DNA of 64,000 nucleotides from a virus. A model generated the notes under the pieces. The model made no database searches. It was not told the origin of the DNA and worked only from the letters and a program-made list of their open reading frames with translations. The stretch lies in IMG/VR virus record IMGVR_UViG_3300027659_000015, positions 41,722 through 105,721 of that record, one strand, 5' to 3'. Numbering within the stretch: position 1 is the stretch's first letter; every line of letters starts with the position of its first letter. Of this stretch, positions 51,184-56,308 are shown one piece after another. The translations under genes were made by a program, and so were the position numbers.

Positions 51184-52257
51184 ATGAATATGAAAATTGC
51201 TGTAATTACTGACCAACATTTTGGAGCTAGAAACGACTCCGTTCACTTCTTGGATTTCTATGAGAAGTTCTACCGTGAAACATTTTTTCCTAAGATTAAG
51301 GAAGAACAGATTAAGTTCGTACTGATTTTAGGTGATACCTTTGACCGTAGAAAGTATGTGAATTTCTATTCTCTCAAGCGTACCAAAGAGATGTTCTTTG
51401 ATCCGTTACAAGAGATGGGATGTGAAGTCTTTATGTTGGCTGGTAATCACGACACATACTTTAAAAATACGAATGATGTAAACTCTGTTGACCTATTGTT
51501 AGCAGAGTATGGTAACATACATGTTATCACAGAGCCAGAAACTATCTACATTGGACCTAAACCGATTGCAATGGTACCATGGATATGTGCCGATAACTAT
51601 GAACAAACATTACAGTTTATCAAAGAGACTGATGCCACAATCTGTATGGGTCACTTTGAAATTGCTGGATTTGCTATGCATCGTGGTATGCCATCACAAG
51701 AAGGCTTAGACCGTTCCTTATTCAACAAGTTTGATTATACATTCTCTGGTCACTATCACCACAAATCAAATGCTGATGGCATCTATTATCTTGGTAATCC
51801 ATATGAATTAACATGGCAAGATTACAATGATACCAGAGGATTTCACCTGATGGACTTTTGGAAAGATGAAATACAATTCATACCAAATCCAAATCGTATG
51901 TTCCACAAAATCCTATATGACGATAAGGTAGATACCATTAAAGAGATTGATGGTAAAAACTTATCTGAATACAAGAATACCTATGTCAAAGTGGTTGTGG
52001 TCAATAAAACCAATCCGTACCTATTTGACAAGTTCATGAATAACCTGTATAATGTCAATCCAATCGACATTACTATAGCTGAAGATTTTACTGAATTATC
52101 ATTTGATGATGAAGAATTAGTAAATGAGGCAGAGGATACAATTACAATTCTAAACAAATATGTTGATGGTATCTCTGAAGATAACATTGATAACACCAAA
52201 TTAAAAAACATTCTCAAAGAACTTTACGTTGAAGCTTTGAATACTGAACAAGCATGA
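51184..52257 (+). CDS. gp47: Recombination nuclease subunit gp47 (SbcD/Mre11 type)
   Basis: A 357-residue metallophosphoesterase (T4: 339) that with gp46 resects double-strand ends for recombination-dependent replication. The motifs are complete: D10-x-H12 in ITDQHFG, GDTFD (50-54), GNHD (87-90), GHFE (156-159) and GHYHH (189-193). No Shine-Dalgarno is seen, and a second in-frame ATG lies at 51190 (MNMKIAV). Its end overlaps gp46 by 4 nt, as expected for a stoichiometric complex. Confidence 0.94.
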   Translation: MNMKIAVITDQHFGARNDSVHFLDFYEKFYRETFFPKIKEEQIKFVLILGDTFDRRKYVNFYSLKRTKEMFFDPLQEMGCEVFMLAGNHDTYFKNTNDVNSVDLLLAEYGNIHVITEPETIYIGPKPIAMVPWICADNYEQTLQFIKETDATICMGHFEIAGFAMHRGMPSQEGLDRSLFNKFDYTFSGHYHHKSNADGIYYLGNPYELTWQDYNDTRGFHLMDFWKDEIQFIPNPNRMFHKILYDDKVDTIKEIDGKNLSEYKNTYVKVVVVNKTNPYLFDKFMNNLYNVNPIDITIAEDFTELSFDDEELVNEAEDTITILNKYVDGISEDNIDNTKLKNILKELYVEALNTEQA

Positions 52258-53972
52258 TATTATTCCAAAAAGTTAGGTGGAAGAATTTTCTTTCTACTGG
52301 TGCTCATTATACAGAAATTAATTTTACCAAATCACAGAACACTTTGATTATTGGTCAGAATGGTGCTGGTAAGTCCACTATACTGGATGCACTTTGTTTT
52401 GGCCTGTTTGGTAAACCGTTTCGTAAAATAAATAAACCACAACTGGTAAACTCTATCAATACAAAAGATTGTGTTGTGGAAGTATTCTTTAATATCGGTC
52501 AGAAACAATATAAGATTGTTCGTGGTATTAAACCGAATACATTTGAAATTTATATCAATGATGTTTTGCTGAACCAAGATGCCGCTGCAAAAGACTATCA
52601 AGAGGTACTAGAGAAACAAATTCTCAAATTAAACTACAAGTCCTTTACGCAGGTGGTCATCCTTGGTTCAGCATCTTTTGTTCCGTTCATGCAGTTATCT
52701 GCCAATGACCGTAGAACTATTATCGAAGACCTACTCGACATTCAAATCTTTTCATCAATGAATGGTGTGGTCAAAGATAAACTATCCGAATTCAAAGAAG
52801 ATATTACCAAAGCAAAGTATGGTATCTCTCTGACGGAAGAAAAGATTAAACTTCAATTACAGAACATTGAAGAACACAAGAAACATAATGATGATGAGAT
52901 TGCCAAGATACTGGCTGAAATAGGTAAATCAAAAGAGCAACACAACAAATTACGAAATGATATTGAGTTGATTAACAAACATGTTAAAGTATTGAACTCA
53001 AAGATTGGTGATAAGAAAGAAAAACTGGAAAAGAAATCTAAAGGTTTGTTTCAGGTTAAAGGTAAGATTGAGAACAATATCAAGAAGAATGAAAAAGATA
53101 TTGAATTCTACCAACATAATGATAACTGTCCTACTTGTAAACAATCTATTGAACCAGACTTCAAAGAACACCAAGTTGAAGAACGTACTAATAAATTAGG
53201 TACACAGAAAATTGGTCTTACTGAGGTAGAAACCGAACTTCAAAATATTACTAATGAAATGTCGGATATCACCAAGATTATCCAGCATATTATTGAACAC
53301 CAAAATCAAGTAACAGAACATAATGCTACGGTGAGAGCTATCAGTACATACATTGATAAGTTAAATAAACAATATGATGAACTGTCTATCAAGGTTAATA
53401 GTCCACAAGCTGATAACCAAAAGTTACTTGAGTTGAAATCTGAGATGTTTGAATTCAACACGGCATATGAAGAACTGATGAACGAAAAACATTATTTTGA
53501 ATTTGCAGGTTCTTTGTTAAAAGATACTGGTATCAAAACCAAAATCATTAAACAATATTTGCCAATTATGAATAAGTTGATTAACAAGTACCTAACTGCC
53601 ATGGACTTCTTTGTTAACTTTAACATTAACGAAAACTTTGAAGAAACAATTAAGAGTAGGCACCGTGATGAATTCTCTTATGCCAATTTCTCTGAAGGCG
53701 AGAAGATGCGTATCGACTTAGCACTCCTTTTTACATGGAGACAGATTGCTAAGATGAAAAACTCTACCAATACAAACCTATTGATACTAGATGAGGTATT
53801 TGATTCTAGTCTCGATACAGTCGGTACAGAAGAATTTTTAAAGTTGATACATGAGATGGGACAAGACACAAATGTGTTTGTTATTTCCCACAAAGGAGAC
53901 CAACTGTTCGATAAGTTCCGTTCGGTCATTAAGTTTGAGAAAAAAGGAAACTTTTCAAGGATAGCAAAATGA
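52254..53972 (+). CDS. gp46: Recombination ATPase subunit gp46 (SbcC/Rad50 type)
   Basis: A 572-residue SMC-like ATPase (T4: 560). Walker A GQNGAGKST is at 34-42, the zinc-hook motif CPTC at 292-295 lies in the middle of two long coiled-coil arms (about 165-285 and 305-420), the ABC signature FSEGEKMRIDLA is near 477, and Walker B LLILDEVFD is near 505. With gp47 it forms the end-resection nuclease that feeds UvsX/UvsY. It overlaps gp47 and the deformylase by 4 nt each. Confidence 0.95.
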   Translation: MILFQKVRWKNFLSTGAHYTEINFTKSQNTLIIGQNGAGKSTILDALCFGLFGKPFRKINKPQLVNSINTKDCVVEVFFNIGQKQYKIVRGIKPNTFEIYINDVLLNQDAAAKDYQEVLEKQILKLNYKSFTQVVILGSASFVPFMQLSANDRRTIIEDLLDIQIFSSMNGVVKDKLSEFKEDITKAKYGISLTEEKIKLQLQNIEEHKKHNDDEIAKILAEIGKSKEQHNKLRNDIELINKHVKVLNSKIGDKKEKLEKKSKGLFQVKGKIENNIKKNEKDIEFYQHNDNCPTCKQSIEPDFKEHQVEERTNKLGTQKIGLTEVETELQNITNEMSDITKIIQHIIEHQNQVTEHNATVRAISTYIDKLNKQYDELSIKVNSPQADNQKLLELKSEMFEFNTAYEELMNEKHYFEFAGSLLKDTGIKTKIIKQYLPIMNKLINKYLTAMDFFVNFNINENFEETIKSRHRDEFSYANFSEGEKMRIDLALLFTWRQIAKMKNSTNTNLLILDEVFDSSLDTVGTEEFLKLIHEMGQDTNVFVISHKGDQLFDKFRSVIKFEKKGNFSRIAK

Positions 53973-54589
53973 GTACAGATGATAATATAGTTTTATATAA
54001 CACGGACGAAAAGGTAAAGATTCAACAACCACAAATTGAAACTTTCGATTTAGTTGACCCAACACATTCAGCATTACACAAAGCATTACAAGAATTTGAT
54101 TTTGATAATACGCCTATCAATCCGGATGATTTCGCTTCTTCACTTGTTGAAACTTGTAAGAAAAATAATGGATTAGGATTATCTGCCAACCAATGTGGGT
54201 TTGAACATCGTGTTTTTGTGATGGGTGCCGAAGATGATTATATTGCCTGTTTCAATCCAAAAATTATTGAAATGGAAGGCGAAGCACATATGGAAGAAGG
54301 TTGCCTTACTTTTCCATTATTGATGTTGAGAGTTACCAGACCTAAAAAGATTAAAGTGGAATACCAGGATTTCACAGGTGTGAAACGAGAAGCAACTTTC
54401 GATGGCATAAGTGCGAGAGTTTTCCTCCATGAGCTTGACCATATGAACGGAATAGTGTATACTAGTCGTGTAAAGCCTTTGGCATTCCAGTTTGGTTTGA
54501 AGAAACTAAACAAGATTCGCCGTAAGTATTTTAATCCTAAAGTTATGGCACAATTAGCAGCACAACAAAATAATGGCAAAACAACTTAA
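53969..54589 (+). CDS. def: Peptide deformylase
   Basis: A 206-residue Fe/Zn peptide deformylase, which removes the N-formyl group from nascent proteins. All three family motifs are visible with viral-type variation: GLGLSANQCG (68-77; usual GxGLAAxQxG), EGCLTFP (110-116; usual EGCLS) and HELDH (154-158). Cys111 and the two His of HELDH are the metal ligands and the Glu is catalytic. Many T4-like phages of aquatic bacteria carry such genes. It overlaps gp46 by 4 nt and the next gene by 17 nt. Confidence 0.92.
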   Translation: MSTDDNIVLYNTDEKVKIQQPQIETFDLVDPTHSALHKALQEFDFDNTPINPDDFASSLVETCKKNNGLGLSANQCGFEHRVFVMGAEDDYIACFNPKIIEMEGEAHMEEGCLTFPLLMLRVTRPKKIKVEYQDFTGVKREATFDGISARVFLHELDHMNGIVYTSRVKPLAFQFGLKKLNKIRRKYFNPKVMAQLAAQQNNGKTT

Positions 54590-55940
54590 AATCGTAAATA
54601 CAATCTTTGGTGAAGAAGAACAAGTCTGTCAAAGTAATGTCATTCCACCAGTTGATGAACAATGGAAAATTTGGCAACAACAAAATCCACCAACCACTGG
54701 TGAAAAAGTTGATAAAGAAACTTTAAAATCAAAGTTGATTAATGATTTGACATATGCATCTAAAATGGATGTACGTGAATATACCTTGTATCAAAAATGG
54801 ACAGAAGTCAAGAAAAGATATCCACTTAAAGTAACATCTACCATAAATGATGAAATTGTTATGGATGATCCAAAACAAAACAAAATAATTCAACAAGTTA
54901 AACAAAACTTTTGGATGCCAGAATCACCAGATGATTATGCCAATTTAAGACCTATCATGAAATTGTCTAATGGTAGTGAAGGTGATTTTACAGTTGATGA
55001 ATGGAATGCCATTCGTACCTTTTCTTCCACAATGAAGAACAATTCTAATATTGGTCGTAATCTATTCTATACAGTTATCGATGGCCAGTCAGGAAAGTAT
55101 CTTGGTGTTATTTGTATCAGTTCCGACTTCTTAGACCTGACTCCAAGAGATAATAAAATTGGTTGGTCGAGAGATGTTAAGACACAACAAAGTATGATTA
55201 ATCATACGGCAATTGGTTCTACGATTGTTCCTTTACAACCACTAGGTTTTAATTATATGGGCGGCAAGTTACTTGCCTTATTATGTTTATCGGATACAGT
55301 ACAAAATGATTGGAAGGTAAAATATGGAGATACACTTGTTGGTGTTACTACTACTTCACTTTATGGTAACACAAAGTCCGGTGGTCTTTCTCAGTATGAT
55401 GGTTTGGAACATTGGGAGAAAATGGGATTCTCATCTGGTTCAGTTGCTTTTGAACCATCCAAAAAAACAGTAGATGAAATTTATAAATGGGTTAAAGAAA
55501 ATTATCCCGAAAAATACTTTGAGTGGTGGGATGCAAAGAAGCCAACCACAAAATTTGATAAAGATGGTAATGGAAAAGATGGTGGTTTACCTTTGAAACG
55601 TGACCATAAGAATCGCACACTTAATTTTGCCTATTCTAAGTTAGGCATTCCAAAAGAATTAATTCGTACAGAACATGCGAGAGGAATCTATTTTTCTCCT
55701 CTCTATAATAACACCAATGAATATCTCCGCAAGGAGATTGGTGATAAAGAACTGGTTAAATCGTTTGATACCAGTGAAGAAGCCTTGACGCAAATTTGGA
55801 AAACCAAATATGCCAAAGGTCGTATATCAATGTTGAAGAAAAAGAACACCGTATCTTATGAATCTTTGTTCTATGATGACTTGATATACCTGTCTTGGGA
55901 AGAAACCAAGGCTAAGTATTTGCCACAAGTTGGCAGATAA
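54573..55940 (+). CDS. DruA/DUF4338-like protein of unknown function
   Basis: A 455-residue protein. Residues about 160-290 match my memory of the DUF4338/DruA family: GKYLGVICISSDFLDLTPRD with NKIGWSR (194-200), AIGSTIVPLQPLGFNYMGGK with LLALLCLSD, and then YGDTLVGVTTTSLYGNTKSG with YDGLEHWEKMGFSSG. Cellular DruA proteins show the order 'YLGv...ss......RD..IGW', 'L...v', 'W...yG..p.l.eT...', 'Y.a..W..lG.t.G'. The C-terminal 90 residues (RTEHARGIYFSPLYNNTNEY, then LIYLSWEETKAKYLP) are extra. DruA belongs to the Druantia anti-phage system; what phage homologues do is not known to me. It may act on DNA, as its replication neighbours suggest. Confidence 0.55.
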   Translation: MAKQLKIVNTIFGEEEQVCQSNVIPPVDEQWKIWQQQNPPTTGEKVDKETLKSKLINDLTYASKMDVREYTLYQKWTEVKKRYPLKVTSTINDEIVMDDPKQNKIIQQVKQNFWMPESPDDYANLRPIMKLSNGSEGDFTVDEWNAIRTFSSTMKNNSNIGRNLFYTVIDGQSGKYLGVICISSDFLDLTPRDNKIGWSRDVKTQQSMINHTAIGSTIVPLQPLGFNYMGGKLLALLCLSDTVQNDWKVKYGDTLVGVTTTSLYGNTKSGGLSQYDGLEHWEKMGFSSGSVAFEPSKKTVDEIYKWVKENYPEKYFEWWDAKKPTTKFDKDGNGKDGGLPLKRDHKNRTLNFAYSKLGIPKELIRTEHARGIYFSPLYNNTNEYLRKEIGDKELVKSFDTSEEALTQIWKTKYAKGRISMLKKKNTVSYESLFYDDLIYLSWEETKAKYLPQVGR

Positions 55941-56041: not shown

Positions 56042-56308
56042 ATGACTAAACTATCCGCAAAACAACGTATGTTGAATGCTTTGAGCAAACCAGAAGGTTA
56101 CAACACCTTCACAGTCGAGCAAGCTCGCCGCCGCTTTGGTGTTACCAATGTGTCTGCTCGTATCGATGAACTTCGTCAAGAAGGTCACGTAATCTATACT
56201 AACACCAAGTACAACGCTAACGGTGTTAAAGTTGCTTCTTATCGCCTCGGTAAGCCAACTAAAGCTATGGTGCGTACAGCACTTCAAGCAGGTTATAGCT
56301 TAGCTTAA
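56042..56308 (+). CDS. Small winged-helix DNA-binding protein
   Basis: An 88-residue basic protein with its own strong promoter and terminator, so it is a monocistronic unit. The sequence KQRMLNALSKPEGYNTFTVE, QARRRFGVTNVSARIDELRQ and EGHVIYTNTKYNANGVKVAS is a compact winged helix: helix-turn-helix at about 24-45 and a wing at 47-70. Similar proteins are widespread in T4-like phages of aquatic bacteria and are usually unnamed. A transcription or replication accessory role is possible. The strong expression signals suggest high abundance. Confidence 0.75.
   Translation: MTKLSAKQRMLNALSKPEGYNTFTVEQARRRFGVTNVSARIDELRQEGHVIYTNTKYNANGVKVASYRLGKPTKAMVRTALQAGYSLA

What the first reader, a model, noticed from the sequence alone, without database searches (positions are those of the whole stretch)
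54573..55940. Phage protein resembling DruA/DUF4338 in the replication-recombination block
Residues 160-290 show the family's ordered motifs (YLGV, RD-x-x-IGW, G-x-T-x-V-P, D-x-L-V-G-x-T-T-T-S, W-x-x-x-G). DruA is a component of the Druantia anti-phage system, so a phage relative beside recombination genes might be a counter-defence mimic, a DNA-modifying enzyme or the ancestral form. The function of the viral branch is not known to me.
Basis: partly seen in the sequence, partly recalled or inferred. Interest (0 to 1): 0.6.

Follow-up and report, generated by a model that had tools for sequence, protein, structure and literature searches.

The report
Viral DruA protein, likely an acyltransferase
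A gene carried by every examined close relative of this T4-like water phage encodes a viral cousin of DruA, an unexplained part of the bacterial anti-phage system Druantia; it has the fold of an acyl-transferring enzyme, so it is probably a phage replication-module enzyme rather than a Druantia mimic.

Summary
Its profile matches plasmid-borne Druantia DruA over 268 columns (hhalign E 2e-28). An AlphaFold2 model (pLDDT 90, pTM 0.84) retrieves almost only GNAT-fold acyltransferases from the PDB. The tree places Druantia DruA as one clade and the viral proteins as its sister, so this is an old viral lineage, not a recently captured copy.

In this T4-like, pelagimyophage-related group the gene is core: present in 64 of 64 gp46 loci with room for it, directly after gp47-gp46-(peptide deformylase). 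It is as conserved as gp46 and gp47. Near-complete relatives carry a second, cyanophage-type DruA gene in the replisome cluster. Nothing Druantia-like lies nearby, and a published survey found no Druantia in Pelagibacter, the host of the nearest isolated relatives. A dedicated Druantia decoy is unlikely.

Small DUF4338 proteins share a collinear signature with Mom, the phage Mu DNA-modifying GNAT. My best mechanism is therefore an acyltransferase that modifies phage DNA or replication-associated DNA. The fold is well supported; the DNA substrate is inferred only.

The parts
54573..55940 (+). Viral DruA-family gene (called DruA1 here), 455 aa
55026..55730 (+). PF14236 DruA domain, residues 152-386, with the GNAT-like core strands and helices
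   Evidence: profile match; model; Foldseek PDB hits nearly all GNAT
55236..55274 (+). QPLGFNYMGGKLL, residues 222-234: loop and helix after a strand, at the place of the GNAT acyl-CoA loop; Q222, P223, G225, G230, G231, K232, L233 invariant in 33 viral-type proteins
   Evidence: the acyl-CoA role is inferred
55350..55427 (+). TTSLYG...SQYDGLEHW...G, residues 260-285. Y275/W281/G285 align with Y/W/G of small DUF4338 proteins (GSVYRASNWIEIG), which align with Mu Mom (GVVYQASNFDFIG)
55770..55937 (+). C-terminal helical region ending in a nearly invariant Arg (QVGR), residues 400-455, beyond the Pfam model
53969..54589 (+). Peptide deformylase gene upstream; overlaps the DruA1 start by 17 bases; detected in 66 of the 72 relatives with an upstream neighbour
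52254..53972 (+). gp46/SbcC
51184..52257 (+). gp47/SbcD
56042..56308 (+). 88-aa winged-helix protein (HTH_39), next recognised gene downstream in 75 of 75 relatives

Best explanation
The gene encodes a viral DruA-family protein with a GNAT acyltransferase fold. It is a core member of the replication-recombination module of this T4-like phage group, usually accompanied by a second, cyanophage-type DruA gene elsewhere in the replisome cluster. Shown: family, predicted fold, core status, two copies in most near-complete relatives, sister relation to Druantia DruA. Inferred: it uses an acyl-CoA (or related) cofactor bound at the QPxGxNxxGGKLL loop, with the TTS...Y275...W281 motif at the active site, to add a small group to replicating phage DNA, in the manner of Mom. 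The mark would separate phage DNA from host DNA for the phage's own nucleases and for host restriction enzymes.
For: Pfam/PADLOC DruA matches. hhalign to Druantia DruA: score 218, E 2e-28, 268 columns; to small DUF4338: score 134; 0 of 100 column shuffles reach either. Model pLDDT 89.7, pTM 0.84; by my count at least 48 of the top 50 PDB hits are GNAT-like acyltransferases, best Foldseek probability 0.97, E 8e-3; DUF4338 is called a GNAT domain in PMC10853773. Small DUF4338 versus Mom: score 45, probability 84%, 176 collinear columns, best of 100 shuffles 21.8, sharing G-x-x-Y-x-A-S/A-N-W/F-x-x-x-G; one DUF4338 protein weakly hits Pfam Mom on that motif, E 0.008. Core gene in 64 of 64 testable gp46 loci; identity similar to gp46/gp47. 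Second copy directly after gp41 helicase (four of four relatives read), beside gp43 (HTVC008M) or between gp44 and gp62 (cyanophages).
Against: No direct profile match of the viral type to Mom (score 17, within shuffles). The best Foldseek PDB E-value is 8e-3, none below 1e-3. The usual GNAT signature R/Q-x-x-G-x-G/A is not clearly present. No sequence evidence of the substrate; protein, nucleotide or RNA acylation fits the data too. Jumbo phages L334 and L344 and cyanophage S-SSM7 carry both Mom and DruA, so the two are not simply interchangeable.
Confidence: 0.42

Rival explanations
1. Protein (or RNA) acyltransferase for host takeover or regulation: a GNAT enzyme that acylates host or phage replication, transcription or translation proteins.
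For: GNAT fold; the retrieved GNATs with known substrates act mostly on proteins, small molecules or tRNA; PMC10853773 proposes protein targets for the DUF4338 GNAT domain fused to DndF; the neighbouring peptide deformylase also acts on proteins.
Against: DruA relatives sit in DNA-centred settings (Druantia, DndF fusion, transposons) and the small DUF4338 profile links to Mom; the gene stays with replication genes although its position changes.
Confidence: 0.24
2. Non-catalytic GNAT-fold DNA-binding or scaffold protein that works with gp46/47 or the replisome.
For: Canonical acyl-CoA loop not evident; long flanking N- and C-terminal regions and a nearly invariant C-terminal Arg; association with gp46/47 and a winged-helix gene.
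Against: Many invariant polar residues in the core (R192, S184, K232, T260, T261, Y264, Y275) look catalytic.
Confidence: 0.18
3. Counter-defence mimic that poisons or satisfies Druantia in the host.
For: True homology to Druantia DruA over 268 columns.
Against: Core and slowly evolving; viral clade is a deep sister, not nested in Druantia; a published DefenseFinder screen of 172 Pelagibacter genomes found only restriction-modification systems, in 19 of them (PMC11066056).
Confidence: 0.07
4. Superinfection or defence gene: the phage uses a DruA to exclude competing phages, as in Druantia.
For: Relatives in bacterial integrative or transposon settings (L252, L253) and in Druantia.
Against: No Druantia partner genes beside it; embedded in the replication module and present in every testable relative.
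Confidence: 0.06

Closest known systems
DruA of Druantia (PF14236; plasmid examples in Pseudomonas putida, Nitrosococcus, Meiothermus, haloarchaea)
   Same: Homologous over residues 115-420, shared GGKL, TTS...S-x-Y and R-x-x-Y...L...N motifs
   Different: No druB-E or long helicase beside the viral gene; viral proteins form a separate sister clade; extra N- and C-terminal regions ending in GR
Cyanophage DruA-like proteins (phrog_19197; S-PRM1 gp050)
   Same: Same family, also among replication genes; already noted by structure as DruA-like in PMC12774648
   Different: This is the longer DruA1 type next to gp46; the cyanophage type (DruA2) is a distinct paralogous clade, and the group of the window carries both
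Pelagibacter phages Mosig EXVC030M and HTVC008M DruA1
   Same: 57% and 49% identity, same place after gp46
   Different: Annotated only as DUF4338 or hypothetical protein; I found no functional study
Mom of phage Mu (PF25680), a GNAT-fold DNA adenine-modifying enzyme
   Same: GNAT-type fold and, through small DUF4338 proteins, a collinear profile with the Y-x-A-S-N-W/F signature
   Different: No direct profile match to the viral DruA type; the R-A-S-N part of the signature is replaced by D-G-L-E-H
Small DUF4338 proteins of jumbo phages and transposon neighbourhoods
   Same: Same Pfam family; hhalign score 134
   Different: About 230-290 aa, most carry YRASNW and GSM/GSQ instead of SQYDG and GGKL; outgroup in the tree

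Membership tests
DruA domain family PF14236 | Profile score above the curated cut-off | tested here: met
   71.7 bits against 27
DruA domain family PF14236 | Ordered family motifs (G, RD-x-x-IGW, T, Y, G) | tested here: met
Druantia defence system component | Neighbouring Druantia genes (druB-E, long helicase) | tested here: not met
   PADLOC scan of seven neighbouring proteins finds none; UvsW and gp46 give only generic helicase/SMC-type matches
Druantia defence system component | Falls inside the Druantia DruA clade | tested here: not met
   Seven Druantia-type DruAs form one clade (100/94), viral proteins a separate one (94/87)
GNAT superfamily | GNAT fold | tested here: met
   Confident model; at least 48 of the top 50 PDB hits GNAT-like, probability up to 0.97, but best E 8e-3; supported by PMC10853773
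GNAT superfamily | R/Q-x-x-G-x-G/A acyl-CoA motif | tested here: inconclusive
   QPLGFNYMGGKLL lies at the right place but does not match the pattern cleanly; coordinates could not be inspected
GNAT superfamily | Acyl-CoA binding and acyl transfer | not testable with these tools
   Needs biochemistry
Mom family PF25680 | Profile match to Mom | tested here: not met
   No Pfam Mom hit up to E 1; direct hhalign within shuffle range; only the small DUF4338 branch matches Mom

The most novel reading that the evidence does not exclude
DruA and Mom belong to one lineage of nucleic-acid-modifying GNAT enzymes: aquatic T4-like phages carry two such enzymes as core replication genes that put an undescribed acyl-type mark on DNA, and Druantia's DruA is a defence-side branch of the same enzyme, which would explain what DruA does in Druantia.
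Probability: 0.25. Interest if true: 0.85.

Novelty: new variant of a known kind. Interest (0 to 1): 0.52.

Why it matters
I know of no established biochemical activity of DruA. A core phage branch of the family, with a predicted GNAT fold and an indirect link to Mom, turns that into a testable question: look for a modified base in Pelagibacter phage or cyanophage DNA. If right, abundant aquatic T4-like phages would have a DNA modification not yet described, and Druantia type I would gain a mechanism.

Tried and rejected
Sequence search of the PDB with the single protein or the A1 profile: no real hit. First structure model on a shallow alignment: pLDDT 70 with only weak GNAT hits; replaced by a deeper alignment. 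hhalign of A4 against A8 was circular because A4 holds the small proteins; repeated with A9, which does not. Idea that Mom replaces DruA: Methylophilales phage Melnitz has Mom and no DruA, but S-SSM7 and jumbo phages L334 and L344 have both, so not exclusive. Association with CobS and the adjacent VWA-like 'peptidase' gene: present around DruA in several phages but no match in this window, so not required. NCBIfam: no match. The Mom mechanism paper (10.1093/nar/gkaa319) is not held; Mom details beyond PMC7824862 are from memory. A PF14236 survey of a bacterial order could not be run because it needs a genome handle of that order.

Full report
OBSERVATION. The ORF window:54573-55940 (+) is real: 455 codons from ATG, overlapping the preceding peptide deformylase by 17 bases. 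It matches Pfam PF14236 (DruA) at E 7.4e-20 over residues 152-386, PADLOC DruA at 2.7e-16 and PHROG 19197 (unknown function) at 4.5e-26.

WHERE IT IS FOUND. The window is the end of a 105,721-base virus record; only one DruA lies in that record, which stops about 8 kb after the gene. The closest named relatives are Pelagibacter phages Mosig (57%) and HTVC008M (49%), both Kyanoviridae; more distant ones are in Synechococcus phages. Of 80 loci fetched with the neighbouring gp46, 64 carry DruA and the other 16 end too soon to tell; none with room lacks it. The order gp47-gp46-(deformylase)-DruA-winged-helix is conserved. Protein identity to the window (median 73%) is close to gp46 (70%) and gp47 (71%) and above deformylase (61%) in the same loci. 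This is the pattern of a core gene, not of a fast-changing anti-defence gene.

TWO COPIES. HTVC008M has a second DruA-family gene between DNA polymerase and UvsX. A PF14236 search of records behind the loci finds two or more members in most of the near-complete relatives of the window. In four relatives read directly, the second copy (about 370 aa) sits right after the gp41 helicase. In cyanophages the corresponding protein lies between gp44 and gp62. The tree makes this DruA2 a clade apart from DruA1 (100/100). Large phages L334-L338 carry a DruA1-like protein plus a small DUF4338 protein about 1.5-2 kb further on; where I read the genes between (L334, L337) they include a gp62-like gene and a probable nucleotide kinase.

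RELATION TO DRUANTIA. The viral query picks out DruA on plasmids with Druantia-like operons (DruA, hypothetical genes, long helicase). Profile comparison of 33 viral-type proteins with seven Druantia-type DruAs gives score 218, E 2e-28, 268 columns; none of 100 column shuffles exceeds 26. Druantia DruA is closer to the viral type than to the small DUF4338 proteins (score 64, 60 columns). In an IQ-TREE tree with small DUF4338 as outgroup, Druantia is one clade (100/94) and all viral-type proteins another (94/87). Long branches are present (Druantia and small groups), so the sister relation is good but not final. Two bacterial examples, L252 (near a tyrosine recombinase) and L253 (a 733-aa fusion near a transposase), fall inside the viral jumbo clade, suggesting capture from phages. 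No Druantia gene lies in the window neighbourhood.

FOLD AND MECHANISM. With a diverse 54-sequence alignment the AlphaFold2 model reaches pLDDT 89.7 and pTM 0.84. Its PDB hits are, by my count, GNAT-like acyltransferases in at least 48 of the best 50, with probability up to 0.97 but E-values no better than 8e-3; an earlier weaker model gave the same kind of hits. PMC10853773 independently describes DUF4338 as a GNAT domain. Small DUF4338 proteins match the Mom profile (score 45, 176 columns, best of 100 shuffles 21.8), sharing G-x-x-Y-x-A-S/A-N-W/F-x-x-x-G. A clean profile alignment places viral Y275, W281 and G285 on the Y, W and G of that signature. Mom of phage Mu acylates DNA adenine (PMC7824862). 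The step from small DUF4338 to the viral type is strong; the step to Mom is moderate; a direct viral-to-Mom match is absent. I therefore judge a DNA-modifying acyltransferase most likely, at about 0.4, with protein acylation next.

WHY NOT A DRUANTIA DECOY. In PMC11066056 a DefenseFinder screen of 172 Pelagibacter genomes found anti-phage systems in 19, all restriction-modification, yet Pelagibacter phages keep this gene. Together with core status and the deep sister position this argues against a Druantia-specific role. The host of the window's phage is not known.

KNOWN AND NEW. PMC12774648 already reported DruA-like structures in Synechococcus phages, and Mosig's gene is annotated DUF4338. 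In the papers searched I found no description of the core status of DruA1 beside gp46, the two-copy pattern, the sister relation to Druantia, or the DUF4338-Mom profile link; that is no proof that none exists.

Noticed in passing
window:56372-57190: Protein with a weak Anp1 glycosyltransferase-like match (PF03452, E 2.5e-4, below cut-off), phrog_1574 of unknown function, between the winged-helix gene and gp45.
   Followed up: partly
L364:292-1101 (Melnitz-2 69571-70380): Genuine Mom homologue (PF25680, E 7e-49) in Methylophilales phage Melnitz, annotated only as DUF465 protein or hypothetical protein; this phage has no DruA.
   Followed up: partly
L083:3704-4825: Cyanophage S-SCSM2R DruA2 is annotated 'methylcarbamoylase mom', though Pfam matches it only to DruA.
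   Followed up: yes
first model md1cc99fb0f05, BFVD search: Best viral structural matches include uncharacterised proteins of giant viruses (Faunusvirus, Yasminevirus, Dasosvirus; E 2e-12 to 1e-5), suggesting the family also occurs in giant viruses.
   Followed up: no
L249:2280-4708, L250:969-3478: Two adjacent DruA-family genes in tandem on short contigs binned as Thermoplasmata; probably phage contigs placed in the wrong bin.
   Followed up: partly
L253:4906-7107: 733-aa fusion of an unknown N-terminal region with a viral-type DruA in a Verrucomicrobium MAG, next to a transposase gene.
   Followed up: partly
L334, L344 records (G015, G016): Jumbo phages with two DruA-family genes and one or two Mom genes in one genome.
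   Followed up: partly
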